From positions 1,674,001-1,738,000 of the forward strand of contig NC_010676.1 in the NCBI RefSeq assembly GCF_000020125.1: DNA of 64,000 nucleotides. The letters are read 5' to 3'. The DNA comes from Paraburkholderia phytofirmans PsJN (GTDB lineage Bacteria; Pseudomonadota; Gammaproteobacteria; Burkholderiales; Burkholderiaceae). The position numbers and the translations under genes are program-made. This document shows positions 349 to 12,363 of this stretch, piece by piece (the stretch's first letter is position 1; every line of letters starts with the position of its first letter). Below the pieces are notes generated by a model that did no database searches, was not told where the DNA came from, and saw only the letters and a program-made list of their open reading frames with translations.

Positions 349-1203
349 TCAAGGCACGTATGCGCCCTTCGCGTGCAGCGACTGCTCCGCGATGGCGAGT
401 TGTTCGACTGCATCCGCGCCTTCCAGCGCGAGCAGATGCGCGACCAGCGACTCGGCCAGCGCCGTAGCCGCCACCAGCGACGGAAAGAACGACGGGCTCT
501 CGTGCGAAAAGATCAGCACCTTGTCGGCGTTCAAGGCGATCGGCGAGACGGCGCTGTCGGTGATGGCAATCAGCTTGCTGCCTTTTTCCAGCGCGGCTTC
601 GGCCACGCGCGCGGCCTCCACCGAATACGGCGCGAAACTGATCACGATGGTCGCGCTGTCACGCTCGATGGTGCGCAGTTGCATTTCCAGCGTGCCGGCC
701 TCGCCGTTGAGCAAGGACACCGAGGAACGGAACAGCCGGTAACCGTACACGAGACCGAACGCCACCGCGTAACAGGACCGGAAGCCGGCCACATGAACAT
801 GCGGCGCGCGCCGCAACAAACGCGCGGCTTCAACAATCACACGGCCGTTATGCGCGGCGGTGACCTCGAGGTTGTGCTGCTGCGCGACCAGCAGGTCGTT
901 CGCCAGCGCGTCTTTCGATTTGACGAGCGAGCGGGCGCGGCTCGTGAGCGGCTCGGGGCGCGTGCGCACGCGCGCGACGAACAGGTTACGCAATTCGTTC
1001 CACCCGGGGAAACCGAGTTGCTGCGACAGACGCACCAGCGAGGCCGGTTGCACCTGCGCCCGTTCCGCCACTTTGCGCATGGACGAGACCGCGACCTCGT
1101 CGGGATGATCGAGCAGGAAACCCGCTCCCATCTGGAACTGCGGACTCAGTTCGGAAAAGCGCGCCCGGATCAGGGCGGCGAGCTGGTCGAAACTGTCTGG
1201 CAT
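349..1203 (-). CDS. MurR/RpiR family transcriptional regulator
   Basis: A 284-residue cytoplasmic DNA-binding repressor or activator. The N-terminal HTH_6 domain (about residues 1-77) contains the 'VSSMRKVAERAQVQPASLVR' recognition region. The C-terminal SIS domain (about 115-250) normally binds a phosphosugar or amino-sugar; GFRSCYAVAFGLVYG and SFAPYSVEAARVAEAA are its ligand-loop segments. I chose the ATG at 1203 because MPDSFDQLAALI is the usual family opening; the frame stays open upstream to 1419 but that stretch is cysteine-rich and not protein-like. A 13-base motif 33 bases upstream is repeated before the aminotransferase at 75, suggesting autoregulation plus control of that gene. Confidence 0.9.
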   Translation of the reverse strand: MPDSFDQLAALIRARFSELSPQFQMGAGFLLDHPDEVAVSSMRKVAERAQVQPASLVRLSQQLGFPGWNELRNLFVARVRTRPEPLTSRARSLVKSKDALANDLLVAQQHNLEVTAAHNGRVIVEAARLLRRAPHVHVAGFRSCYAVAFGLVYGYRLFRSSVSLLNGEAGTLEMQLRTIERDSATIVISFAPYSVEAARVAEAALEKGSKLIAITDSAVSPIALNADKVLIFSHESPSFFPSLVAATALAESLVAHLLALEGADAVEQLAIAEQSLHAKGAYVP

Positions 1204-1382: not shown

Positions 1383-2084
1383 CTAAACACGCCTCTGCTG
1401 CAACGCACCCACTATCCACCGCTCCTCGGATGCCTTGAGATGCGTCCGCATGGCAGCCTGCGCTGCAAGTGGGTCGGCGGCCTGTAGCGCCTTAAGAATT
1501 TCTTCATGCTCCCCCACCGCCGCCGACCACGTCTCAGTGCTTTCCGCGTGGCCACGAATCGCCGCGGCGATCGGGTCGTGCCGGCTGTCGAACATTTCAG
1601 CGACGAACCGGGTAAGTACCGAATTGCCCGCCGTCTCTGCGATCAGCATGTGGAATTGGCGGTCGGCATCGATGGGTGACTTTCCTTCCACTGCCAGTCG
1701 TTTCATCCGGTCCACCGTGCGGCGCAATTTGTCGAGCGCGGCTGCCGAAAACTTTCCAGCGGCCAGAACGATGACCGTCCCTTCGATTGCCGCCCTGGCC
1801 TGCATCAATTCCGACGGGCTTTCTCCAAGGGCGGGAATCACGCTTTCGCCGCCCTCGCCTGGATTTCGGACGTAGACCCCGGACCCGATACGTATTTCAA
1901 CCTGCCCGCCGATCTCCAGTGCGATTAATGCCTCACGCAACGAAGGGCGCGATACGCCTAGCCGGGTGGCGAGCTCACGCTCGGGTGGCAGACGCGCGCC
2001 GGGCGCAAGTTCGCCCTCACGGATGAGCGCAAGAATCTGCGTGGCAACAGATTGGTAAAGCCGCTTTGATTCTGTCTGCTTCAT
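1383..2084 (-). CDS. GntR family regulator, FadR/FCD subfamily
   Basis: A 233-residue regulator diverging from the sugar operon at 2326. The N-terminal winged helix (about residues 1-75) shows the GntR hallmarks 'LAPGARLPPERELATRLGVS' and 'RPSLREALIALE'. The C-terminal FCD all-helical ligand domain (about 90-220) carries metal-ligand-type residues D and H in 'DADRQFHMLIAE' and later H residues. FCD regulators typically sense sugar acids or other carboxylates, which fits control of an aldonate pathway. The ATG at 2084 was chosen; a TTG 11 codons upstream is possible. It probably binds the ACTGGCCAGT sites at 2201 and 2273. Confidence 0.92.
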   Translation of the reverse strand: MKQTESKRLYQSVATQILALIREGELAPGARLPPERELATRLGVSRPSLREALIALEIGGQVEIRIGSGVYVRNPGEGGESVIPALGESPSELMQARAAIEGTVIVLAAGKFSAAALDKLRRTVDRMKRLAVEGKSPIDADRQFHMLIAETAGNSVLTRFVAEMFDSRHDPIAAAIRGHAESTETWSAAVGEHEEILKALQAADPLAAQAAMRTHLKASEERWIVGALQQRRV

Positions 2085-2130: not shown

Positions 2131-2200
2131 AGAGTCTAGCATAGCCGCAGAAGCCAATACTGTCCTCGCATTGGGCCTATGCAAGGGTTTTCCTTATTGG

Positions 2201-2210
2201 ACTGGCCAGT
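2201..2210. promoter_or_regulatory. Putative GntR/FCD operator 1 (ACTGGCCAGT)
   Basis: A perfect 10-base palindrome inside the longer shared string ATTGGACTGGCCAGT (2196-2210). It lies 20 bases upstream of the predicted -35 element of the sugar operon and is repeated 72 bases downstream. Assignment to the adjacent GntR protein is by position. Confidence 0.6.
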
Positions 2211-2229
2211 GTGAAAATATGATATTGGC

Positions 2230-2259
2230 TTGACCATTCGGACTGTTCTGCGCTTTAAT
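2230..2259 (+). promoter_or_regulatory. Predicted sigma-70 promoter of the sugar operon
   Basis: TTGACC at 2230-2235 and TTTAAT at 2254-2259 are separated by 18 bases. They match the sigma-70 consensus at 5 of 6 positions each. The promoter sits between the two ACTGGCCAGT palindromes and about 65 bases before the first start codon. Confidence 0.5.
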
Positions 2260-2272
2260 TTCGTCAAATTGG

Positions 2273-2282
2273 ACTGGCCAGT
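2273..2282. promoter_or_regulatory. Putative GntR/FCD operator 2 (ACTGGCCAGT)
   Basis: The second exact copy of the palindrome, within ATTGGACTGGCCAGT at 2268-2282. It falls just after the predicted -10 element, a position where a bound repressor would block transcription. It also argues for the start codon at 2326 rather than an open upstream frame from 2230, since that frame would run through the operator. Confidence 0.6.
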
Positions 2283-2325: not shown

Positions 2326-3888
2326 ATGGAGACGAGATTGACGAATGCCACGCAGCGCGGGCCCGGTCCCGCGGCTGAGCCTGAGCCGCCTGTATCCCGC
2401 GAGATCTTGCAACTGAAAGGTGTGAGCAAGCGCTTTCCAGGGGTCGTCGCCCTCGATGGCATCGACCTCGATCTGTGCGCCGGCGAAGTCCATGCCGTGT
2501 GCGGCGAAAACGGCGCGGGCAAGTCGACATTGATGAAAATCATTAGCGGCCAGTATCGCGCGGATGAAGGCGTGGTCCGCTACCGCGGTGCGCCCGTGCA
2601 GTTCTCTTCCACCTCCGACGCGCAGGCGGCAGGCATTGCGATCATTCACCAGGAACTGAACCTCGTCCCGCACCTCTCGGTCGCGGAAAACATCTACCTT
2701 GCGCGCGAACCCAAACGCGGCCCGTTCGTGGATTACCGCACGCTGAATAGCAATGCGCAGCGGTGTCTGCAACGCATCGGGCTGAACGTGTCGCCGAGCA
2801 CGCTCGTCGGCGCGCTTTCGCTTGCGCAACAGCAGATGGTGGAGATTGCGAAGGCACTGTCGCTAGATGCGCGCGTGCTCATCATGGACGAACCCACCTC
2901 CTCGCTGACCGAATCGGAAACGGTCCAACTGTTCCGCATCATCAGGGAACTGCGCGCTGGCGGGGTGGCGATTCTTTACATCTCGCATCGGCTCGATGAG
3001 ATGGCTGAGATCGTGGACCGCGTTACGGTGCTGCGCGACGGCCGTCACATTGCAACGAGCGATTTCGCCTCGACCACGGTCAACGAAATCGTGGCCCGAA
3101 TGGTCGGTCGCCCGCTCGACGATGCCTATCCGCCACGCCAGTCCACTCCCTCTAATCAGATCCTGCTGCGCGTGCGCGACCTGCAAAGGACAGGCGTTTT
3201 CGGCCCGCTTTCGTTCGAACTGCGCAAGGGCGAGATTCTAGGCTTCGCGGGTCTGATGGGCGCGGGGCGGACCGAAACCGCCCGCGCGATCTTCGGCGCC
3301 GAGCGGCCCGATTCCGGTTCGATCACGCTCGGCGACGAGCCTGTCACGATCGGTTCACCGCGCGAGGCCATTCGACACGGGATCGCATACCTGTCCGAAG
3401 ACCGCAAGAAAGACGGCCTCGCCCTCTCGATGCCGGTTTCCGCAAACATCACGCTGGCCAACGTCCGGGCCATTTCGTCGCGCGGCTTTCTGCGTTTCTC
3501 CGAAGAAACGGCCATCGCCGAGCGCTACGTTCGCGAACTCGGCATCCGTACACCGACGGTCAAGCAGATCGCGAGAAATCTGTCCGGTGGCAATCAACAG
3601 AAGATCGTCATCAGCAAATGGCTGTACCGCGGCTCGCGCATTCTGTTTTTCGACGAGCCCACCCGCGGTATCGACGTCGGCGCGAAATACGCGATTTACG
3701 GCCTGATGGACAGACTCGCGGCGGACGGCGTCGGTGTCGTCCTGATCAGTTCGGAGCTGCCCGAACTGCTTGGCATGACTGATCGTATCGCCGTGTTTCA
3801 TGAAGGGCGTATCACCGCGGTCCTTGAGACCAGACAGACCAGTCAGGAGGAGATCTTGCACCATGCATCAGGGAGAAGTCATGCTTGA
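2326..3888 (+). CDS. Sugar ABC importer, double ATPase subunit (RbsA/AraG/XylG family)
   Basis: A 520-residue fused pair of ATP-binding cassettes that powers sugar uptake at the inner membrane. The first cassette has Walker A GENGAGKST (about 60-68), signature LSLAQQQ (about 164) and Walker B VLIMDEPTSSL (about 185). The second has the atypical A-loop GLMGAGRTE (about 308), signature LSGGNQQK (about 418) and Walker B ILFFDEPTRGID. A degenerate second Walker A is normal in this family. The ATG at 2326 was preferred because the upstream in-frame stretch spans the operator and promoter. It overlaps the permease gene by eight bases. Pathway context suggests L-galactose or L-fucose as ligand. Confidence 0.93.
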   Translation: METRLTNATQRGPGPAAEPEPPVSREILQLKGVSKRFPGVVALDGIDLDLCAGEVHAVCGENGAGKSTLMKIISGQYRADEGVVRYRGAPVQFSSTSDAQAAGIAIIHQELNLVPHLSVAENIYLAREPKRGPFVDYRTLNSNAQRCLQRIGLNVSPSTLVGALSLAQQQMVEIAKALSLDARVLIMDEPTSSLTESETVQLFRIIRELRAGGVAILYISHRLDEMAEIVDRVTVLRDGRHIATSDFASTTVNEIVARMVGRPLDDAYPPRQSTPSNQILLRVRDLQRTGVFGPLSFELRKGEILGFAGLMGAGRTETARAIFGAERPDSGSITLGDEPVTIGSPREAIRHGIAYLSEDRKKDGLALSMPVSANITLANVRAISSRGFLRFSEETAIAERYVRELGIRTPTVKQIARNLSGGNQQKIVISKWLYRGSRILFFDEPTRGIDVGAKYAIYGLMDRLAADGVGVVLISSELPELLGMTDRIAVFHEGRITAVLETRQTSQEEILHHASGRSHA

Positions 3889-4912
3889 AATCACATCGGG
3901 CCCTAACCAGGCCCTCGACAGGCAGGTACAGCAGCGACGCCGCGACCTGATCCAGAAATTCGCGGCACTGGGCAGCCTTGTGGTGCTGATCGTCGCGTTT
4001 TCGCTAACCAGCGCGGCGTTTTTCTCGGTCGGCAACCTGATGACAGTCGCGCTCCAGGTCACGTCCATCGCGTATCTCGGTGTGGCCGCAACGTGCGTCA
4101 TCATCACCGGCGGCATCGATCTGTCGGTCGGCTCAGTGCTGGCGCTCGCGGGCGTCGCGGCCGCCCTGCTGGTCAAGGCAGGCGTACCCATCCCCGTCGC
4201 GATGCTCGGCGGCATGCTCGTCGGCGCCGCGTGCGGATGGGTCAACGGTATCTGCGTCACGCGTATGGGGCTGCCGCCGTTCATCGCGACCCTCGGGATG
4301 ATGCTGGTCGCGCGCGGTCTCGCCCTGCAGATCACCGGCGCAAGACCGGTCTCGGGGCTGGGCGACGCGTTCGGCGAACTGGGCAACGGCGCCCTCTTCA
4401 GGATCTCCCACATCGGCGCAGACGGTTTTCCGGACACCGTCTTTCCAGGCATTCCGTACCCGGTCGTGATCATGGTGGTTCTGTTCGCGGCTGTCTCCAT
4501 CCTGCTTTCGCGAACGTCGCTGGGCCGTCACATTTACGCGGTCGGCTCGAACGCGGAAGCGGCGCGACTCTCCGGCGTCAACGTGCAGGGCGTCAAGCTC
4601 TTTACCTACGTGCTCTCCGGGCTGCTCGCCGGCGCCACCGGCTGCGTGCTGATGTCGCGCCTCGTCACCGCGCAGCCGAACGAAGGCGTGATGTACGAGC
4701 TCGACGCCATCGCAAGCGCGGTAATCGGCGGCACGTCCCTGATGGGAGGCGTCGGCACGATCTCCGGCACCGCCATCGGCGCATTCGTGATCGGCGTGCT
4801 GCGCAACGGTCTGAACATGAACGGCGTATCGAGCTTTATCCAGCAGATCATCATTGGTGTCGTCATTCTCGGCACCGTATGGATCGATCAACTCCGAAAC
4901 CGGAAGTTGTAA
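3881..4912 (+). CDS. Sugar ABC importer permease (RbsC family)
   Basis: A 343-residue inner-membrane permease with about eight to ten hydrophobic helices. The family motif GGIDLSVGSVLALAGV lies near residue 77, and the C-terminal ELDAIASAVIGGTSL segment forms the cytoplasmic coupling region. The ATG at 3881 overlaps the ATPase stop (ATGCTTGA) and has GGAG five bases before it. An alternative ATG at 3863 with AGGAGG further upstream would add six residues. It forms the membrane channel with the ATPase at 2326 and is fed by the binding protein at 4952. Confidence 0.93.
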   Translation: MLEITSGPNQALDRQVQQRRRDLIQKFAALGSLVVLIVAFSLTSAAFFSVGNLMTVALQVTSIAYLGVAATCVIITGGIDLSVGSVLALAGVAAALLVKAGVPIPVAMLGGMLVGAACGWVNGICVTRMGLPPFIATLGMMLVARGLALQITGARPVSGLGDAFGELGNGALFRISHIGADGFPDTVFPGIPYPVVIMVVLFAAVSILLSRTSLGRHIYAVGSNAEAARLSGVNVQGVKLFTYVLSGLLAGATGCVLMSRLVTAQPNEGVMYELDAIASAVIGGTSLMGGVGTISGTAIGAFVIGVLRNGLNMNGVSSFIQQIIIGVVILGTVWIDQLRNRKL

Positions 4913-4951
4913 TCAGAAGACGAAGTCCCAACCACAATCAAGGAGCGAGAC

Positions 4952-5899
4952 ATGAAAAAGTTATCCGTGCTGGCTGCGGCCGCGGCGATGTGTGCAATGT
5001 TCAGCGCGTACGCGCAGGCGGCCGGCGGCGAAATTGCCGTGATCGTGAAAACGGCGAACTCCAACTACTGGCAGAACGTCCAGAAAGGCGCCACGGCCGC
5101 CATGGCGGATGCGAAGGGTTACACGATGACCTTCCAGGGCCCCGCGGCAGAGTCCGCCATCGCGGATGAAGTCAACATGGTCGAGAACGCGGTGAACCGG
5201 CATGTCGCCGGCATCGTGCTGGCGCCGTCCGATCCCGACGCGCTCGTTCCGGCCATGAAGAAAGCGTGGGAAGCCCATATTCCCGTGGTGCTGATCGACT
5301 CGACCGTGTCCGACGCGGGCAAGCAGTATTACCAGTCGTTCCTGTCGACCGACAACACGAAGGCCGGCGAACTCTGTGCGCAGGCCATGATCGATCGTGT
5401 CGGACAGACCGGCAAGGTCGCGATCATGTCGTACGTGCCGGGCGCAGGTTCGGAAATCGGCCGCGTCGGCGGATTCCGCAAGTACATCACAGCGCATTCC
5501 AAGCTGCAGGTGGTCGGGCCGTTCTATTCGCAATCGCAGATGGCAACCGCGCTGAATCAGACGACCGACGTCCTGTCGGCCAATCCCGACCTCAAGGGCA
5601 TTTTCGGCGCGAACGAGCCGACCGCCGTGGGGATGGGGCGCGCGCTGGCCCAGTCCGGAAAAAGCGGCAAGGTCATAGCAATCGGTTTCGATGGCAACCA
5701 GGACCTGCAAGGGTTCGTTCGCGACGGCACGATTCAGGCAATCGCGGTTCAGAGTTCGTACCAGATGGGCTACAAGGGCATCCAGACCCTCGTCAATGTG
5801 ATCGAACGCAAACCCGTCTCGAAGCAGGTGGACACGGGCGTCATGATGGTCGAAAAACAGAACCTCGACTCATCCGAAGCAAAGAACGTTCTCTACTAA
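4952..5899 (+). CDS. Periplasmic sugar-binding protein (RbsB-like)
   Basis: A 315-residue type I periplasmic binding protein. A Sec signal peptide covers residues 1-23 (MKK, then an alanine-rich core, cleavage near AQA-AG). The mature part begins EIAVIVKTANSNYWQNV, the usual ligand-domain opening, and contains DPDALVPAMKKA and GIFGANEPTAVGM. AGGAG lies about seven bases before the ATG. It delivers the sugar to the permease at 3881. Sugar specificity cannot be read from sequence; the downstream enzymes point to L-galactose, L-fucose or D-arabinose, which share stereochemistry at C2-C4. Confidence 0.93.
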   Translation: MKKLSVLAAAAAMCAMFSAYAQAAGGEIAVIVKTANSNYWQNVQKGATAAMADAKGYTMTFQGPAAESAIADEVNMVENAVNRHVAGIVLAPSDPDALVPAMKKAWEAHIPVVLIDSTVSDAGKQYYQSFLSTDNTKAGELCAQAMIDRVGQTGKVAIMSYVPGAGSEIGRVGGFRKYITAHSKLQVVGPFYSQSQMATALNQTTDVLSANPDLKGIFGANEPTAVGMGRALAQSGKSGKVIAIGFDGNQDLQGFVRDGTIQAIAVQSSYQMGYKGIQTLVNVIERKPVSKQVDTGVMMVEKQNLDSSEAKNVLY

Positions 5900-5967
5900 T
5901 GAAACGCGCCGGCGTGGCGTCTTTTGCGGCCGTCCGCCGGCACCTCCTCCATTCAGACATATCCTCG

Positions 5968-6984
5968 ATGAAAGCCATTGCAACGCACGCGCTGCCACGA
6001 AGCGGATTGGCGATGACCACGCTGGGCCTCGGCTGCTCACAACTCGGCGGACTCTACAAGCCTATGTCCGCCGCGGAGGCCAACGCGCTAGTCGACTGGG
6101 CGTGGGACGCCGGCATCCGCTATTTCGACACGGCGCCGTTCTACGGCTATACGCTTTCCGAGCGACGAGTCGGACATTCGCTGCAGATGCGCGAACGGGA
6201 GCGCTACGTACTGAGCACCAAGGTCGGGCGGCTCATGCGGCCCGATGCCACCGTCCAGCCCGGCGACGACGGATGGGCACACCCCCTGCCCTTCCGGCCT
6301 CGTTTCGACTATACGTTCGACGGCATCATGCGCTCGTACGAAGATAGTCAGCAGCGTCTTGGCATGCAGACAATCGACGTCCTCTATGTCCACGATATCG
6401 GCGCTGCGACGCATGGCGATCAGCATTCACGCTACTGGGAACAACTGACCCGGGGCGGCGGATTCCGGGCGCTCGCAGAACTGCGCGACTGCCACGCCGT
6501 TTCCGCGATCGGGCTCGGCATCAACGAATGGCAGGTCGCCGTCGACGCGATGCAGGAAGCCGATCTCGACCTCATCCTGCTGGCGGGCCGCTACACGTTG
6601 CTCGAACAGGAAGCGCTCGCGCCATTACTCGATCGATGTGCGCGCAACGACACTCGGATCGTCGCCGGCGGCGTGTTCAACTCCGGCGTACTCGTGGGCA
6701 ACGGCAAGTTCAACTACGCCGATGCGCCGGTCGAAGTAGCAGACAGGGTCGCGCGTCTCGCCGCCGTCTGCACCCGGTTCGAAGTTCCGCTCGCCGCCGC
6801 GGCTCTCCAGTTCCCACTGGCGCATCCGGCCGTGGTGTCCTGCGTAATCGGCGCGAGCAGTATTGCGCAGTTGCAGCAGAACATCGCATGGCTCGAAACG
6901 CCGCTTCCGCCCGAGTTGTGGCAAGCCTTGCAGCGCGAGGGGCTGATCGCAGAATCGGCCCCGGTCCCGGAGGTCTGCGCGTGA
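5968..6984 (+). CDS. Aldo/keto reductase, aldose 1-dehydrogenase type (L-fucose/L-galactose dehydrogenase)
   Basis: A 338-residue TIM-barrel NAD(P) enzyme. Catalytic tetrad residues are visible: D and Y in 'DTAPFYGYTLSERRVG' (about 53-68), K in STKVGR (about 84) and H in YVHDIG (about 140). Members of this subgroup (D-threo-aldose 1-dehydrogenases) oxidise L-fucose, L-galactose and D-arabinose to the lactone. The next gene encodes a matching lactonase. The start at 5968 gives the family-typical opening; an ATG at 5899 overlaps the binding-protein stop (TAATG) and would add 23 residues. It likely performs the first oxidative step of the operon's pathway. Confidence 0.9.
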   Translation: MKAIATHALPRSGLAMTTLGLGCSQLGGLYKPMSAAEANALVDWAWDAGIRYFDTAPFYGYTLSERRVGHSLQMRERERYVLSTKVGRLMRPDATVQPGDDGWAHPLPFRPRFDYTFDGIMRSYEDSQQRLGMQTIDVLYVHDIGAATHGDQHSRYWEQLTRGGGFRALAELRDCHAVSAIGLGINEWQVAVDAMQEADLDLILLAGRYTLLEQEALAPLLDRCARNDTRIVAGGVFNSGVLVGNGKFNYADAPVEVADRVARLAAVCTRFEVPLAAAALQFPLAHPAVVSCVIGASSIAQLQQNIAWLETPLPPELWQALQREGLIAESAPVPEVCA

Positions 6985-7853
6985 CGCTCCGAATCGACGC
7001 TCACCAGCACTTCTGGCAGATTGCCGACCGTGAAGGTTACTGGCCGCCGCACACGCTGGATGCCATCTACCGGGACTTCGGTGCGCAGGACCTCGAGCCT
7101 ATCCTCGCGCGATCCAACGTTCAGCGCACAGTGCTGGTCCAGTCACTGCCGACGCCGGAAGACACGCGCTATCTGCTCGATATCGCGTGCGCATCGAGCG
7201 TCGTGGCGGCAGTCGTCGGATGGGTGGACCTGAAATCCGCCGGGGCGCCGGCAAGTCTTGCCATGCTGGCCCGGCAGCCAAAATTTCGCGGCGTTCGACC
7301 CATGCTGCAGGATCTCGACGATGACGGCTGGATCGACGACCCGATGCTCGAACCTGCGGTTGAGGCGATGTTCGAACACGATCTCAGTTTCGATGCGCTC
7401 GTCACGCCTCGCCATCTGCACGCGTTGCTGGCGTTCGCACGCCGGTACCCTCGCCTGCGCATCGTGATCGACCACGCGGCAAAGCCGCCGATCGCGTCCG
7501 GCCGGTCTGAACCGTGGCACGTCGCGATGAGCCGGCTTGCCGAACTTCCCAACGTCCATTGCAAGCTTTCCGGACTCTGGACGGAAGCCGGTCCCCATCC
7601 CGACCTCACACTTGTCGAGCCGTACGTGCGCGCCGTATGTGAGTGGTTCGGCGCATCGCGGCTGATGTGGGGCAGCGACTGGCCCGTGTCCAGACTTGCC
7701 GGCCATTTTGGTGACTACGGCGACTGGCTCGCCTGGTGCGAACAATGCTGTGACCGCTTCCTCGGTCCCGACGCGCACGCCAGCGTTTTTGGCGGCAATG
7801 CATGCCATTTTTACAGAATCGATCATCCGTCCGACGATCGACAAGCCCAATAG
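6981..7853 (+). CDS. Amidohydrolase-family aldonolactonase (COG3618 type)
   Basis: A 290-residue amidohydrolase-2 family protein with N-terminal DAHQHFW (residues 6-12), central DHAAKPP, KLSGL, and C-terminal metal-site motif GSDWPV (about 230). This subgroup includes L-fuconolactonase and L-galactono-1,5-lactonase. It would open the lactone made by the preceding dehydrogenase. The GTG start overlaps the previous stop (GTGA) and has GGAGG seven bases before it, so translation is coupled. Confidence 0.9.
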   Translation: MTLRIDAHQHFWQIADREGYWPPHTLDAIYRDFGAQDLEPILARSNVQRTVLVQSLPTPEDTRYLLDIACASSVVAAVVGWVDLKSAGAPASLAMLARQPKFRGVRPMLQDLDDDGWIDDPMLEPAVEAMFEHDLSFDALVTPRHLHALLAFARRYPRLRIVIDHAAKPPIASGRSEPWHVAMSRLAELPNVHCKLSGLWTEAGPHPDLTLVEPYVRAVCEWFGASRLMWGSDWPVSRLAGHFGDYGDWLAWCEQCCDRFLGPDAHASVFGGNACHFYRIDHPSDDRQAQ

Positions 7854-7866
7854 AGAGGATGCCAAA

Positions 7867-8874
7867 ATGCTTAGCGTCATTTGCGAATCGCCCGGCGTAC
7901 TGCGCCACGAAGAACGCGAACCGCCTCGCCGCGCTGAAGGTGAAGTGCTGCTGCGAGTTCGCCGCGTCGGTATCTGCGGCACGGACATGCACATCTATTC
8001 GGGGAATCAGCCCTACCTGCAATACCCGAGAGTCATGGGGCACGAGCTGTCAGCGATCGTTGCCGAGGCTGATCCCGGCGCGCACGTCGTGCCCGGCGAC
8101 GCCGTCTATGTGATGCCCTATCTGTCGTGCGGAAAATGCATCGCCTGCAGACAGGGTAAAACCAACTGCTGCGTCAACATCAAGGTGCTCGGCGTGCATC
8201 GCGACGGCGCGTTGACGGAATATCTGTCGGTGCCCGCACAGTTCGTCCATAAGGCCGACGGCGTGACCCTGGATCAGGCGGCAATGCTCGAGTTCCTCGC
8301 CATCGGCGCGCACGCGGTGCGGCGTGCCGATGTGGCGGCCGGCCAGCGGGTTCTCGTTGTCGGTGCCGGCCCAATCGGCATGGCGGCCATGCTGTTCGCG
8401 AACCTGCGCGGCGCGCGCGTCGCCTGCCTGGACACGCGAGCCGATCGTCTTGCGTTCTGCCGCGAGCACATTGCCGTGTCGACAGTTCAGATCGGCCCGA
8501 ATGACGTCGATGAATTGTCTGCGCTCACCGATGGCGAGTTCTTCGACGTGGTGTTCGACGCGACGGGCAACGTCAAGGCGATGAACCGCGGTTTTGAGTT
8601 CATCGCCCACGGCGGGAAATATGTGCTGATTTCGATCGTCCCGGGCGAGATCGCATTCTCCGATCCGGAGTTCCACAAGCGCGAGGCGACCCTGCTCGGC
8701 AGCCGCAACGCGACCGCGGAAGACTTCGAAACGGTCCTCGACGCCATGCGCGCGGGCCACATCCCCGACAAAGCGCTCAACACGCACCGCATGAGCCTCT
8801 CGGACGTACCCACCGAGTTCCCGAAACTGATGGAGCCCGGACAAACCGTCGTCAAGGCGCTGGTCGAGTGCTAA
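7867..8874 (+). CDS. Zinc-dependent dehydrogenase, L-galactonate 5-dehydrogenase (LgoD/YjjN) type
   Basis: A 335-residue medium-chain dehydrogenase. Catalytic zinc residues lie in GICGTDMH (about 36) and MGHE (about 57); the structural zinc cysteines are in CGKCIACRQGKTNCC (about 88-102); the NAD-binding motif is VGAGPIGMAA (about 165). The order of motifs ICGTDMH..GNQP, YPRVMGHE, GVHRDGALTEYLSVP and SDPEFHKREATLLGSRNA is the one I recall for E. coli LgoD, which oxidises L-galactonate to D-tagaturonate. This fits between the lactonase and the tagaturonate-reductase-like gene. It starts 13 bases after the lactonase stop. Confidence 0.88.
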   Translation: MLSVICESPGVLRHEEREPPRRAEGEVLLRVRRVGICGTDMHIYSGNQPYLQYPRVMGHELSAIVAEADPGAHVVPGDAVYVMPYLSCGKCIACRQGKTNCCVNIKVLGVHRDGALTEYLSVPAQFVHKADGVTLDQAAMLEFLAIGAHAVRRADVAAGQRVLVVGAGPIGMAAMLFANLRGARVACLDTRADRLAFCREHIAVSTVQIGPNDVDELSALTDGEFFDVVFDATGNVKAMNRGFEFIAHGGKYVLISIVPGEIAFSDPEFHKREATLLGSRNATAEDFETVLDAMRAGHIPDKALNTHRMSLSDVPTEFPKLMEPGQTVVKALVEC

Positions 8875-8901
8875 CCGAACCCCGTGGTGGAATCGTTCGA
8901 G

Positions 8902-10062
8902 ATGAGTGAACCTATTCTTCAGTTTGGCACCAGCCGGTTCCTCCAGGCCCATGTCGCGCTGTTCGTTTCGCAGGCGCTTGAGCGGGGCGACGCAATCGGC
9001 GGCATCTGCGTGGTGCAGACTACCGACAACCCGTCCAGCCAGGCGCGCATCGCCGCACTGGCCCAGGCAGCCAGTTATCCGGTGAAAATCCGCGGCAGGG
9101 AGGGCGGCGCGATCGTGGACACGGTCGTCGATTGCCGCGCCATCCGCGCTGCCTGGATTGCCAATCGCGATTGGGCGACGATACGGCATGCGGCGATTCA
9201 TGACGTGCGCGTGATCGTGTCGAACACGGGCGACATGGGCTATCGCCTCGACGAGCGTGATTCGCCCGCCCTGCTCGCGCGGGAGGGTCAGGCGCCGCAC
9301 AGCTATCCCGCGAAGTTGCTCACGCTCCTTCATGCACGGTGGCGTGAACGGCCTGACTCGGGCATCTCGATCTTTCCGTGCGAACTCGTCGCCAGCAACG
9401 GCGACACGCTGCGCGATCTGGTGACCGGCCTGGCTCGACAATGGGTGCTGCCCACGCCGTTTGTCGCCTATCTGTCGCAGCGATGCATCTGGGTCAACTC
9501 GCTGGTCGACCGCATCGTATCGGAACCGATCGAACCGGTAGGCGCGGTGGCCGAACCCTATGCGCTGTGGGCGATCGAGCGGCGCGCGGGCATGGAACTG
9601 CCGTGTACGCATGAACACATCGTAGTCACTGACGACCTGAGCAGCTACGAGCAACTCAAGCTGTTCTTTCTGAACCTCGGGCATACGTGGCTCGCTGACC
9701 AATGGCTCGCGCAGCGCCGAAGCGCGACCGAGACCGTCTTCGATGCGATGAACGATGGGCCGCTACGCGACGGCATCGAGGCTGTGTGGGACAACGAAGT
9801 GTTGCCCGTCTTCAGTGCGATGGGTTTGCGCGCTCGCGCCGTGCAGTACGTCGCGAGCGTGCGCGAACGGTTTCTCAATCCGTACCTCGATCACCGCATC
9901 GCGGACATTGCCAACCACCATGTCGAAAAGGTCCGGCGGCGAATCCTGCCGCTGATAGAGCTCGCCGACTCGCTGTCAGTCGGATCCGGTCAGACGCGTC
10001 TGCGCGAAACGCTCGCACGGCATGGACTGACGTCCTCAACGCAAAGGGCGGACGCATCATGA
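8902..10062 (+). CDS. Mannitol dehydrogenase family oxidoreductase, probable tagaturonate reductase (UxaB/UxuB family, short form)
   Basis: A 386-residue long-chain polyol-type dehydrogenase. The opening 'ILQFGTSRFLQAHVALFVSQ' matches the family's N-terminal nucleotide-binding motif; FPCELVASNGDTLR and the catalytic K region in NEVLPVFSAMG and YVASVRERFLNPYLDHRIADI follow. E. coli UxaB and UxuB are about 480 residues, so this is a compact variant. In pathway order it would reduce D-tagaturonate to D-altronate, the substrate of the next enzyme. The ATG at 8902 is preferred over GTG codons at 8884 and 8887. Its stop overlaps the uxaA start by four bases. Confidence 0.85.
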   Translation: MSEPILQFGTSRFLQAHVALFVSQALERGDAIGGICVVQTTDNPSSQARIAALAQAASYPVKIRGREGGAIVDTVVDCRAIRAAWIANRDWATIRHAAIHDVRVIVSNTGDMGYRLDERDSPALLAREGQAPHSYPAKLLTLLHARWRERPDSGISIFPCELVASNGDTLRDLVTGLARQWVLPTPFVAYLSQRCIWVNSLVDRIVSEPIEPVGAVAEPYALWAIERRAGMELPCTHEHIVVTDDLSSYEQLKLFFLNLGHTWLADQWLAQRRSATETVFDAMNDGPLRDGIEAVWDNEVLPVFSAMGLRARAVQYVASVRERFLNPYLDHRIADIANHHVEKVRRRILPLIELADSLSVGSGQTRLRETLARHGLTSSTQRADAS

Positions 10063-11585
10063 CAGATCAGACAATCGTCATCCTTCACAACGAGGACAAC
10101 GTAGCGGTGGCATTGCGGGCGCTCGAGGCGGGCACGCCGGTTGAAGCGGGCGGGCAACGGGTCGTCGTCAGAGGTTCTATTGCGGCCGGCCACAAGCTGG
10201 CTATCCGGCGCATCGCGCGCGGCAGCGCCGTGACCAAATATCGGCAGACAATCGGTATCGCGCTGGCCGACGTCGAGCCGGGCGAGCACGTGCACGTCCA
10301 CAACGTCGGCATGCCGGAGCATCATCCGCATCGCCCCACGCACAGCGATGCGGTTCGCAGTCTCGCACCCGTGGACCGGCCGGGAGCGTTTCAGGGGTTC
10401 GTGCGTGCGGATGGTCAGGTTGGAACACGCAACTACATCGGGGTGATCGCCAGCGTCAACTGTTCCGCGAGCGTGTGTCACGCGATCGCGGACGCCTTCA
10501 AGGGCGACGCAATGGACCCGTTCAGCACGGTGGATGGCGTCGTCGCGATTACCCATCAGAGCGGGTGCGGAATGTCCGCCACGGGTGACGGCATGGCCTT
10601 GCTTCGGCGCACGCTGACCGGCTACGCCTGCAACCCGAACTTCGCGGGCGTGCTGCTGGTGGGCCTTGGTTGCGAGGTGAACCAGGTGAGCGGTCTCACG
10701 AGGTCCCTCGAAGCCGGCAGCCCTGCCCTTGTCGAAACACTTGTCATACAGGATGAAGGCGGCGTACGCGAGACAGTGGCGCGCGGTATCGCCATCGTCC
10801 GGGAGATGCTGTCGGCGGCCAGCCGCATACGGCGCATCGAGGTCCCTGCCGCGCGTTTGAAAGTGGGGCTGCAATGCGGCGGCTCGGACGGCTATTCGGG
10901 AATCACAGCGAACCCCGCTCTCGGCGCAGCCGTCGATCTCCTCGTGCGCCATGGCGGCACGGCGATCCTCTCCGAAACGCCAGAGATCTACGGCGCGGAA
11001 CATCTGCTGACCGCACGGGCGGTATCGTCCGACGTCGCGGGGCGACTGCTCGACAAGCTGCGCTGGTGGGAGCGGTATGCCGCCGAAGCAGGCGGCGACA
11101 TGAACAACAATCCCTCGCCCGGCAACAAGGCGGGCGGCATCACGACCATTCTTGAAAAATCGCTGGGCGCGGTTTCGAAAGGCGGAAGTACCGCGCTCAA
11201 CGCGGTCTACGAATATGCCGAGCGGGCGTCGGAATCAGGTTTGGTCTTCATGGACACGCCGGGCTACGACCCTGTGTCCGCAACCGGTCAGATTGCGGGC
11301 GGTGCCAATCTGGTCTGCTTTACGACCGGGCGTGGTTCGGTGTTCGGTTCAAAGCCGGTGCCGACCATCAAGCTCGCGACAACCACGGGCTTGTTCGAGC
11401 GGATGCGCGCTGATATGGATTTCAATTGCGGTCAGATCGTAGATGGTTCGCTCACCGTCGAACAGGCCGGCGCGCAGGTATTTCAACTCATGCTGGACAT
11501 TGCGTCGGGTACGAAGACCCACAGCGAACAGAACGGCATGGGCGATCGTGAGTTCGTGCCCTGGCTGCGCGGCGCGATCATGTAA
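10059..11585 (+). CDS. uxaA: Altronate dehydratase family protein
   Basis: A 508-residue protein with an N-terminal SAF domain (about 1-95) and a C-terminal UxaA dehydratase domain. Conserved segments include GQVGTRNYIGVI, HQSGCGMSATGDG, VGLGCEVNQV, LQCGGSDGYSGITANPA, NNNPSPGNKAGGITTILEKS and MDTPGYDPVSATGQ. It dehydrates D-altronate to 2-keto-3-deoxy-D-gluconate with a metal cofactor. The start codon overlaps the preceding stop (ATGA). Length and motifs are complete. If the true substrate is a 6-deoxy sugar, the product would be the 6-deoxy analogue. Confidence 0.93.
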   Translation: MTDQTIVILHNEDNVAVALRALEAGTPVEAGGQRVVVRGSIAAGHKLAIRRIARGSAVTKYRQTIGIALADVEPGEHVHVHNVGMPEHHPHRPTHSDAVRSLAPVDRPGAFQGFVRADGQVGTRNYIGVIASVNCSASVCHAIADAFKGDAMDPFSTVDGVVAITHQSGCGMSATGDGMALLRRTLTGYACNPNFAGVLLVGLGCEVNQVSGLTRSLEAGSPALVETLVIQDEGGVRETVARGIAIVREMLSAASRIRRIEVPAARLKVGLQCGGSDGYSGITANPALGAAVDLLVRHGGTAILSETPEIYGAEHLLTARAVSSDVAGRLLDKLRWWERYAAEAGGDMNNNPSPGNKAGGITTILEKSLGAVSKGGSTALNAVYEYAERASESGLVFMDTPGYDPVSATGQIAGGANLVCFTTGRGSVFGSKPVPTIKLATTTGLFERMRADMDFNCGQIVDGSLTVEQAGAQVFQLMLDIASGTKTHSEQNGMGDREFVPWLRGAIM

Positions 11586-11668
11586 CAAGCGCGGCTTGCT
11601 GCAATCGATTGAAACTCCGACGCGGCGCAGGAATCTCAGACTCCCGAGGGGATCAGGAACCGTTTCCC

Positions 11669-11974
11669 ATGGACACAAACGCACCCGAATCGACGCCGCA
11701 GGATGGCGTGAAAGAGTTCCGCCTGTCAGCGCAGCAGAGACGCCTGCTTGGCGAGGCGCTTGCGCTGCTGATCGACACACGCTCGCGCGCGCTGGACGTG
11801 GCGGTTCAGGTCTGTCGACGTCGAGGCAGCGCCGTTCCCGACGTGCACGACTTTCAATTGCCCGCGATCATCGAACTGCAAAGGCGGCTGGAAGGAACGC
11901 GCGAGCGGTTGGACGACATGCTTCCACCGAAGTTGTCCGTGTTTGCAGCTAACGGGACGTGCGATCTTCAGTGA
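11669..11974 (+). CDS. Small protein of unknown function in the sugar operon
   Basis: A 101-residue frame between uxaA and the mutarotase, in the same orientation. The translation begins MDTNAPESTP and has a charged helical middle (FRLSAQQRRLLGEALALLID) and an ELQRRLEGTRERLDDML segment. No signal peptide, membrane helix or known motif is visible. Codon use resembles the neighbours. It could be an unrelated small helical protein. Function unknown; I am moderately sure it is translated. Confidence 0.5.
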   Translation: MDTNAPESTPQDGVKEFRLSAQQRRLLGEALALLIDTRSRALDVAVQVCRRRGSAVPDVHDFQLPAIIELQRRLEGTRERLDDMLPPKLSVFAANGTCDLQ

Positions 11975-12021
11975 AAATTGCGCCTGTGCACGGCCCGCTT
12001 CCCATCACATAAGGAGTCGCT

Positions 12022-12363
12022 ATGCGGTACTGCTTCGCACTGGATCTGAAGGACGACCAGGCGCTTATCGAGAGTTACGAAAAATATCACCGCGACGTCT
12101 GGCCTGAAGTGCTGCAGCATCTGCGCGAGCATGGCGTGGTGGGTATGGAGATTTTCCGACTTGGAACCCGCCTGACGATGGTCATGGAGACGGACGACGT
12201 CACGTTTGACGGCGACAAGATGGCCCGAGCCGCCGAATCGAACCCGGTGATTCGTGATTGGGAGGATTTGATGTGGAAATTCCAGGCGCCCACGCCGTGG
12301 ACGCCAGCGGGCGAGAAGTGGGTTTCGATGCGCCAGATATTTGACCTACGCAAACAGCCGTAA
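12022..12363 (+). CDS. L-rhamnose/L-fucose-type mutarotase (RhaM family)
   Basis: A 113-residue ferredoxin-fold mutarotase. The key histidine region 'YEKYHRDVWPEVLQHLREHG' (about 19-38) and C-terminal WKFQAP and MRQIFDL segments match the RhaM/DUF718 family, which equilibrates sugar anomers after uptake. AGGAG precedes the ATG by five bases. It ends the operon and would supply the anomer used by the dehydrogenase at 5968. Family members act on L-rhamnose or L-fucose; L-galactose is a plausible substrate since it differs from L-fucose only at C6. Confidence 0.88.
   Translation: MRYCFALDLKDDQALIESYEKYHRDVWPEVLQHLREHGVVGMEIFRLGTRLTMVMETDDVTFDGDKMARAAESNPVIRDWEDLMWKFQAPTPWTPAGEKWVSMRQIFDLRKQP

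What the first reader, a model, noticed from the sequence alone, without database searches (positions are those of the whole stretch)
2326..12363. Operon that encodes a nearly complete oxidative L-galactose (or L-fucose) route through tagaturonate and altronate
Enzymes appear in pathway order: aldose 1-dehydrogenase, lactonase, LgoD-like dehydrogenase, UxaB/UxuB-family reductase, UxaA dehydratase, mutarotase, plus a dedicated ABC importer. L-galactose would go to lactone, L-galactonate, D-tagaturonate, D-altronate and 2-keto-3-deoxy-D-gluconate. I recall a comparable L-galactose route from Bacteroides vulgatus; I know of no description in beta-proteobacteria with its own transporter. KDG kinase and KDPG aldolase are not in the window. 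L-fucose is an alternative substrate, which would give 6-deoxy intermediates.
Basis: partly seen in the sequence, partly recalled or inferred. Interest (0 to 1): 0.75.

Follow-up and report, generated by a model that had tools for sequence, protein, structure and literature searches.

The report
Operon for eating L-galactose
A soil bacterium carries a self-contained set of genes that most likely imports the plant sugar L-galactose and breaks it down by a route already reported from related bacteria, so this is a well-made new example rather than a new pathway.

Summary
Variants of it recur in Paraburkholderia, Trinickia and Burkholderia, with a TTGGNCTGNCCA operator-like site in the promoter. 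L-galactose is the best substrate. The same genome has a separate L-fucose operon with paralogous reductase and lactonase (56% and 50% identity), matching a cluster type that is L-fucose-induced in P. mimosarum; D-arabinose has another cluster there. A Sphingomonas cluster pairs homologous enzymes with a FucP symporter, and a Neorhizobium cluster joins a homologous importer, reductase and lactonase to both L-fucose genes and this branch. C5 oxidation and re-reduction followed by phosphorylation at C6 does not suit L-fucose or D-arabinose. KDPG aldolase and a candidate KDG kinase are elsewhere in the genome. Every substrate remains inferred. New member of a known kind.

The parts
1383..2084 (-). 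FadR/GntR-family regulator (FCD domain), divergent from the operon
   Evidence: Pfam GntR + FCD; best NCBIfam models UxuR, NanR and ExuR, all below cut-off; in 77 of 90 related loci
2197..2208 (+). operator-like site TTGGACTGGCCA
2225..2236 (+). operator-like site with one mismatch, TTGGCTTGACCA, overlapping a possible -35 element
   Evidence: for the site; promoter reading by eye
2269..2280 (+). second exact operator-like site TTGGACTGGCCA
2326..3888 (+). CUT2-type sugar ABC transporter ATPase
   Evidence: Pfam ABC_tran; RbsA/XylG/AraG-like, below NCBIfam cut-offs
3881..4912 (+). ABC transporter permease
   Evidence: Pfam BPD_transp_2
4952..5899 (+). periplasmic sugar-binding protein
5968..6984 (+). 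aldo-keto reductase, proposed NAD(P)-dependent L-galactose 1-dehydrogenase
   Evidence: Pfam Aldo_ket_red; the five best PDB matches are all named L-galactose dehydrogenase; 56% to the AKR of the genome's L-fucose operon
6984..7853 (+). COG3618 amidohydrolase, proposed L-galactono-1,5-lactonase
   Evidence: Pfam Amidohydro_2; NCBIfam L-fucono-1,5-lactonase 192.6 bits, cut-off 400; PDB 4dlf E 1.6e-39
7867..8874 (+). zinc MDR dehydrogenase, proposed L-galactonate 5-dehydrogenase
   Evidence: Pfam ADH_N + ADH_zinc_N; cysteines 88, 91, 94, 102 and GICGTD/GHE motifs
8902..10062 (+). short (386 aa) UxaB-like reductase, proposed D-tagaturonate reductase
   Evidence: Pfam Mannitol_dh and Mannitol_dh_C; NCBIfam tagaturonate reductase 208 bits, cut-off 359, against 45.5 for fructuronate reductase; K-x4-N-x2-H motif at 253, these residues invariant in the six aligned sequences
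10059..11585 (+). UxaA/GarD-family dehydratase, proposed D-altronate dehydratase
   Evidence: Pfam SAF + GD_AH_second + GD_AH_C; NCBIfam galactarate dehydratase 383.8 bits, cut-off 730.9
11669..11974 (+). conserved 101-aa protein, function unknown
   Evidence: no Pfam match; 12 of 90 related loci; dN/dS 0.12-0.48 in 11 of 12 pairs, dS saturated in the twelfth
12022..12363 (+). RhaM-family mutarotase, proposed L-galactose mutarotase
   Evidence: Pfam rhaM 106 bits; NCBIfam YiiL 22.7 bits, far below cut-off 99.6

Best explanation
[quoted passage not shown] The ABC importer brings in the sugar and the mutarotase balances its anomers. The AKR oxidises C1 to L-galactono-1,5-lactone and the COG3618 enzyme opens it to L-galactonate. 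The zinc dehydrogenase oxidises C5 to D-tagaturonate, the short UxaB-like enzyme re-reduces C5 with opposite stereochemistry to D-altronate, and the UxaA-family enzyme dehydrates this to KDG. KDG is then phosphorylated and split to pyruvate and glyceraldehyde 3-phosphate by enzymes encoded elsewhere in the genome. Shown: the genes, their families, synteny, the conserved operator-like site, the separate L-fucose-type and L-rhamnose-type operons, KDPG aldolase beside edd. Inferred: the substrate of every step, the kinase, transport specificity, regulation.
For: Families and order. AKR: the five best PDB relatives are L-galactose dehydrogenases; AKR and lactonase are 56% and 50% identical to those of the genome's own L-fucose operon. 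A P. mimosarum AKR 43% identical to this one (taken to be A19U_RS0129385 from its place beside a UxaA-type dehydratase) acts on D-arabinose, L-fucose and L-galactose (PMC6336799 section 13). A Sphingomonas cluster holds homologues of AKR, ZnADH, UxaB-like, RhaM, split UxaA and a distant (28%) amidohydrolase with a FucP symporter that scores over a curated cut-off. A Neorhizobium cluster has binding protein 76%, AKR 56%, lactonase 56%, ZnADH 51%, UxaA 51% identical to the window's, together with SDR and FAH genes 60% and 68% identical to those of the L-fucose operon. Separate L-fucose operon in this genome: heteromeric UxaA-type dehydratase, SDR, FAH hydrolase, AKR, lactonase, ABC; its six enzymes are 68-85% identical to P. 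mimosarum counterparts, a cluster type reported as L-fucose-induced there. P. mimosarum carries the present operon as a further, separate cluster. Lower route: Eda and Edd over NCBIfam cut-offs; kinase 60% identical to one directly behind UxaA in Diaphorobacter.
Against: No enzyme was assayed. NCBIfam scores for lactonase, UxaB-like and UxaA proteins are all below their curated cut-offs, and UxaA's best model is galactarate, not altronate, dehydratase. L-glucose is the C4 epimer and the 43P L-gluconate route uses the same kind of C5 epimerisation, so sequence alone does not fix C4. I recall that the 4wut binding protein was solved with D-fucose; both tools cut the title before the ligand, so this is unverified, but if right it would not simply fit L-galactose. 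18 of 90 related loci have the importer without AKR in the locus, and 36 have neither. The kinase candidate scores 182.6 against a cut-off of 400.
Confidence: 0.8

Rival explanations
1. The operon degrades L-fucose through 6-deoxy analogues of tagaturonate and altronate.
For: AKR and lactonase are paralogous to those of the L-fucose operon; an AKR of this kind accepts both sugars; the Sphingomonas and Neorhizobium clusters mix both branches.
Against: The genome has a separate L-fucose operon of a kind known to be L-fucose-induced. This operon lacks the SDR and FAH hydrolase of the L-fucose route. 6-deoxy-KDG has no C6 hydroxyl for KDG kinase (established chemistry).
Confidence: 0.07
2. The substrate is L-glucose/L-gluconate or another C4 epimer, going through 5-keto-L-gluconate and D-idonate as in Paracoccus 43P.
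For: 43P uses the same sequence of C5 oxidation, C5 reduction and dehydration of the aldonate (PMC12632266 introduction); its dehydratase type is UxaA-family (PMC6336799 section 8). Related UxaB-like genes sit with amino-acid-type ABC importers in Diaphorobacter and Rhizobium.
Against: AKR and lactonase belong with enzymes of L-galacto-configured sugars; NCBIfam prefers tagaturonate over fructuronate reductase for the UxaB-like protein (it has no 5-keto-L-gluconate reductase among its matches); FucP association. PMC12632266 presumes L-glucose is absent from nature.
Confidence: 0.06
3. The importer and dehydrogenase pair mainly serve an aldonate or polyol, and AKR, lactonase and mutarotase are accessory.
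For: 36 of 90 related loci have neither the CUT2 binding protein nor AKR, and 18 have the importer without AKR. Of six tested genomes whose locus lacks AKR, two (G302, G308) have no AKR of 54% identity or more anywhere.
Against: In the other four (G303-G306) such an AKR exists elsewhere in the genome (8 of all 10 tested genomes), and 9 of 10 have a full-length UxaA relative of 53% or more. The window operon has AKR, lactonase and mutarotase intact.
Confidence: 0.05

Closest known systems
L-galactose route of Acidovorax avenae ATCC 19860 (Watanabe, Fukumori and Watanabe 2019, doi 10.1111/mmi.14259; title seen; abstract recalled; full text not held)
   Same: beta-proteobacterium; L-galactonate epimerised at C5 by two dehydrogenases to D-altronate, then a D-altronate dehydratase-family enzyme (recalled)
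   Different: There, as I recall, it overlaps with an L-fucose route and KDG goes on without phosphorylation; here L-fucose has a separate operon and the lower steps look phosphorylative. I could not compare the A. avenae genes directly.
lgu cluster of Luteolibacter sp. LG18 (PMC12632266; abstract, introduction, discussion and passages read)
   Same: L-galactose dehydrogenase grouped by its authors with GALDH_ARATH and BVU_0219, L-galactonate dehydrogenase, D-tagaturonate reductase, D-altronate dehydratase, then KDG kinase and aldolase, supported by enzymes and gene disruption
   Different: Verrucomicrobiota; kinase outside but aldolase inside the cluster; also uses L-glucose through a C4 epimerase; no lactonase or transporter is named in the cluster in the passages read; sequences not compared here
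L-galactose route of Bacteroides vulgatus (BVU_0219, BVU_0222; mentioned in PMC12632266; original paper not read)
   Same: L-galactose and L-galactonate dehydrogenases
   Different: different phylum; genes not compared here
lgn operon of Paracoccus 43P (L-gluconate; PMC12632266 introduction)
   Same: C5 oxidation, C5 reduction, dehydratase, KDGal kinase and aldolase
   Different: C4-epimeric substrates; the aldose dehydrogenase gene lies in another cluster; sequences not compared here
L-fucose operon of the same genome (about G000:C1:3277865-3287003, in L138) and P. mimosarum cluster 2
   Same: paralogous AKR and lactonase, ABC importer, UxaA-superfamily dehydratase
   Different: heteromeric dehydratase, proposed to act on the aldonate directly, then SDR and FAH hydrolase; no C5-epimerising dehydrogenase pair

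Membership tests
Oxidative L-galactose pathway via tagaturonate and altronate | aldose 1-dehydrogenase of the L-galactose/L-fucose dehydrogenase AKR type | tested here: met
   family level only
Oxidative L-galactose pathway via tagaturonate and altronate | dehydrogenase pair that can invert C5 of the aldonate (zinc MDR plus UxaB-like) | tested here: met
   family level only
Oxidative L-galactose pathway via tagaturonate and altronate | UxaA-family dehydratase acting on D-altronate | tested here: inconclusive
   family met, but best NCBIfam model is galactarate dehydratase, below cut-off
Oxidative L-galactose pathway via tagaturonate and altronate | KDG kinase and KDPG aldolase in the genome | tested here: inconclusive
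   aldolase over cut-off; kinase only a candidate below cut-off
Oxidative L-galactose pathway via tagaturonate and altronate | activity on L-galactose and L-galactonate, induction by L-galactose | not testable with these tools
   needs enzyme assays and mutants
Oxidative L-galactose pathway via tagaturonate and altronate | orthology to the Acidovorax avenae ACAV_RS08155 cluster | not tested
   A. avenae was not among the 80 loci kept of 579 confirmed
Non-phosphorylative L-fucose pathway | L-KDF 4-dehydrogenase (SDR) and FAH-family hydrolase in the operon | tested here: not met
   none of the operon proteins has an SDR or FAH domain; both are in the separate operon in L138
lgn-type L-gluconate operon | preference for 5-keto-L-gluconate and D-idonate over tagaturonate and altronate | not testable with these tools
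   C4 stereochemistry cannot be read from sequence here

The most novel reading that the evidence does not exclude
Burkholderiaceae divide three sugars of the same ring configuration, L-fucose, D-arabinose and L-galactose, among three separate operons with homologous AKRs, and this one is the dedicated L-galactose regulon, with a CUT2 importer specialised for L-galactose, a FadR-type repressor reading TTGGNCTGNCCA, and a previously unnamed 101-aa protein as an extra component.
Probability: 0.45. Interest if true: 0.45.

Novelty: new member of a known kind. Interest (0 to 1): 0.3.

Why it matters
L-galactose occurs in plants and algae (general knowledge), and I know of few transporters for it. 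The operon names a candidate importer, regulator and operator for it in a widespread group of plant-associated bacteria, and P. mimosarum NBRC 106338 carries it beside studied L-fucose and D-arabinose clusters, so the division of labour can be tested in one strain.

Tried and rejected
L-fucose as the main substrate: rejected because of the separate L-fucose operon and the missing C6 hydroxyl. D-arabinose: rejected because it has no secondary C5 hydroxyl to epimerise and has its own cluster in P. mimosarum. L-rhamnose: a separate operon with a RhaS-type binding protein and L-rhamnonate dehydratase, both over cut-off, is at about G000:C1:1.885-1.896 Mb. The idea that the FadR-type site marks a wider regulon including the kinase: 9 exact matches in the genome, 2 of them in this promoter, reversed-pattern control 11; of the other 7, 6 lie inside called ORFs and 1 between ORFs, so no regulon beyond the operon is supported. 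Single-sequence structure of the binding protein was poor (pLDDT 38); with 17 sequences it was 88.9. The RpiR-type regulator at 1203-349 gave no match of 80 bits or more in the 80 related loci, so it is not counted as part of the operon. Three paper searches combining L-galactose with Burkholderiales or Acidovorax terms found no open paper describing the operon: the first two listed nothing; one search listed 5 papers, of which PMC12370193, PMC13406643 and PMC6336799 were looked at by passages or sections and PMC11293516 and PMC10079672 were not opened.
Full report
Observation. The operon is present as described. Gene starts and ends were fixed from the ORF lists and a script and families from Pfam and NCBIfam. 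From 2326 to 12363 on the + strand: CUT2-type ABC ATPase, permease, sugar-binding protein, aldo-keto reductase (AKR), COG3618 amidohydrolase, zinc MDR dehydrogenase, a short UxaB-like protein, a UxaA/GarD-family dehydratase, a 101-aa ORF and a RhaM-family mutarotase. A FadR/GntR regulator (2084-1383) points the other way. Residues expected of working enzymes are there: DAHQH in the lactonase, structural-zinc cysteines in the dehydrogenase, K-x4-N-x2-H in the UxaB-like protein (that these motifs mark metal sites or catalysis is recalled). In the dehydratase, cysteines 170, 205 and 273 have the same spacing as Cys173, Cys208 and Cys276 of the D-arabinonate dehydratase of PMC6336799 (section 8 read); its Cys134 has a possible counterpart (135) that does not keep the spacing.

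Distribution. The window's genome has 8.2 Mb in three contigs. The closest of four proteins found for the 101-aa ORF is from Paraburkholderia sp. BL18I3N2 (96%), so the host is probably a Paraburkholderia. Of 300 genomes of the order (own included), 27 have a match to the UxaB-like protein at E 1e-3 and 7 a match better than 1e-100; one of the seven (G119) has an in-frame TGA. With eleven plasmid loci added and one dropped (L143, gene cut by the edge), 90 loci were scored: ZnADH 79, FadR 77, binding protein 51, UxaA 46, AKR 36, lactonase 22, RhaM 14, 101-aa ORF 12. Of 33 loci with both AKR and importer, 20 score for the lactonase, 19 for UxaA and 10 for RhaM; five (L036, L038, L042, L043, L064) score for all of them, but the lactonase of L036 lacks its middle. 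The set seen in the window is thus a core with dispensable members. The tree of the UxaB-like protein puts the window in a well-supported group of 29 Burkholderiaceae rows, all with the importer, 23 with AKR in the locus (window included); over the whole tree the four context labels need at least 18 changes, so AKR and importer have come or gone many times.

Regulation. Between FadR and the ATPase gene the window has two exact TTGGNCTGNCCA sites and one with a mismatch. At one mismatch or fewer, 43 of 45 intergenic regions (window included) have a site, against a mean of 0.6 and a maximum of 3 in 20 base-shuffled sets. The motif was derived from these same, related sequences, so the figure shows conservation, not binding. 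Genome-wide the exact pattern is no commoner than its reversed control (9 against 11).

Substrate. Four lines point to a sugar of L-galacto configuration. First, the AKR's five best solved relatives are all named L-galactose dehydrogenase, at low similarity. Second, the same genome holds a separate operon (in locus L138, G000:C1:3270000-3289000) with ABC importer, heteromeric UxaA-type dehydratase, AKR, COG3618 lactonase, SDR and FAH hydrolase; its AKR and lactonase are 56% and 50% identical to those of the window. In P. mimosarum NBRC 106338 the counterparts of that operon are 84% (large dehydratase subunit), 76% (small subunit), 75% (AKR), 68% (lactonase), 85% (SDR) and 84% (FAH) identical. 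PMC6336799 assigns a heteromeric L-fuconate dehydratase to that strain (section 8) and states that its L-fucose and D-arabinose clusters are induced only by their own sugar (section 13); I matched clusters by gene content, not by locus tag. The strain also has an AKR beside a UxaA-type dehydratase (L163), which I take for its D-arabinose cluster, and the window-type operon as a further cluster (L164). Third, a Sphingomonas parapaucimobilis plasmid carries ZnADH, RhaM, UxaB-like, split UxaA, AKR, amidohydrolase and SDR together with a FucP symporter, which scores 369.7 bits against a cut-off of 280.4 in one NCBIfam model and 346 against 427 in another; its amidohydrolase is only 28% identical to the window's. 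FucP is described as also carrying L-galactose and D-arabinose with lower efficiency (PMC13406643, passage). Fourth, a Neorhizobium plasmid has binding protein, AKR and lactonase 76%, 56% and 56% identical to the window's, with SDR and FAH 60% and 68% identical to those of the L-fucose operon and a gene its depositors name fucD, next to UxaA (51%), ZnADH (51%) and a gene named uxuB on the other strand. The gene named rhaM there does not match the window's RhaM at E 1e-8, and the gene named fucD reaches no NCBIfam cut-off.

Why L-galactose rather than its neighbours: the dehydrogenase pair oxidises and re-reduces C5, which in L-galactonate gives D-tagaturonate and D-altronate (established chemistry). 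D-arabinonate has no secondary C5 alcohol. L-fuconate would give 6-deoxy products without a C6 hydroxyl for the kinase. The C4 epimer L-glucose cannot be excluded by sequence: Paracoccus 43P runs a parallel route through D-idonate (PMC12632266 introduction). NCBIfam favours tagaturonate reductase (208 bits, cut-off 359) over fructuronate reductase (45.5) for the UxaB-like protein, which is a weak pointer.

Lower pathway. KDPG aldolase and phosphogluconate dehydratase lie side by side on contig 3, both over NCBIfam cut-offs. A PfkB-family kinase at C3:2566294-2567244 is 60% identical to a kinase that directly follows UxaA in a Diaphorobacter cluster; its best NCBIfam model is KDG/KDGal kinase but below cut-off (182.6 of 400), so it is a candidate.

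Operons with parts missing. In ten genomes chosen from the loci (L035, L037, L041, L045, L048, L053, L055, L061, L066, L096), 8 of 10 have an AKR of 54% identity or more somewhere and 9 of 10 a full-length UxaA relative of 53% or more; in 7 of 10 such an AKR lies beside a UxaA-superfamily match of 34-37%, the arrangement of the L-fucose operon. L041, from a symbiont assembly, has no AKR match better than E 7e-6 and only pieces of UxaA; L066 (Pseudomonas) has AKRs of at most 42% identity. So missing steps can mostly, but not always, be supplied from elsewhere.

Results against. The binding protein's nearest structure is 4wut from Agrobacterium vitis (72% identity). I recall that its title says bound D-fucose; both listings cut the title before the ligand. 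If true, it needs explaining, since D-fucose is not of the L-galacto series. The model used was AlphaFold2 with 17 sequences, mean pLDDT 88.9; rmsd to 4wut was 5.0, perhaps from open and closed domain positions (a guess).

Known work. The abstract of Watanabe, Fukumori and Watanabe 2019, as I recall it, describes an L-galactose pathway in Acidovorax avenae in which L-galactonate is epimerised at C5 by two dehydrogenases to D-altronate and dehydrated by ACAV_RS08155. I saw its title in reference lists and the authors' earlier remark that ACAV_RS08155 is an L-galactonate dehydratase in an unidentified L-galactose metabolism; the paper is not held. Luteolibacter LG18 uses an equivalent set of enzymes with disruption evidence (PMC12632266). 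The finding is therefore a new member of a known kind. What may be new is the dedicated CUT2 importer, the operator and the separation from L-fucose and D-arabinose catabolism. I did not find these described in the searches, which cover open-licence papers only and of which I opened only the papers cited here.

Noticed in passing
window 11669-11974: A 101-aa ORF without Pfam match is conserved between UxaA and RhaM (12 of 90 related loci) and under purifying selection; in L075 and L088 it stays beside RhaM although no UxaA is in the locus. Its role is unknown.
   Followed up: partly
L138 (G000:C1:3270000-3289000): The genome has a separate L-fucose-type operon with a heteromeric UxaA-type dehydratase.
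   Followed up: yes
L137 (G000:C1:1880000-1899000): An oxidative L-rhamnose-type operon with RhaS-type binding protein, RhaM, lactonase-like amidohydrolase and L-rhamnonate dehydratase.
   Followed up: partly
L041, L045, L053, L055: Relatives that have importer, ZnADH and UxaB-like gene but no AKR, lactonase or UxaA in the locus; all four keep an operator-like site.
   Followed up: partly
L036:8396-8954: The lactonase gene of this close relative lacks about residues 151-249, and L035 has no lactonase match between AKR and ZnADH, so the lactonase seems dispensable.
   Followed up: partly
L119 (Sphingomonas parapaucimobilis plasmid): A cluster that seems to join L-fucose and L-galactose degradation with one split UxaA-type dehydratase (63% to the large subunit of L138) and a FucP symporter.
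   Followed up: partly
window 349-1203: An RpiR-family regulator next to the FadR gene gave no match of 80 bits or more in the 80 related loci, so it probably belongs to another system.
   Followed up: no
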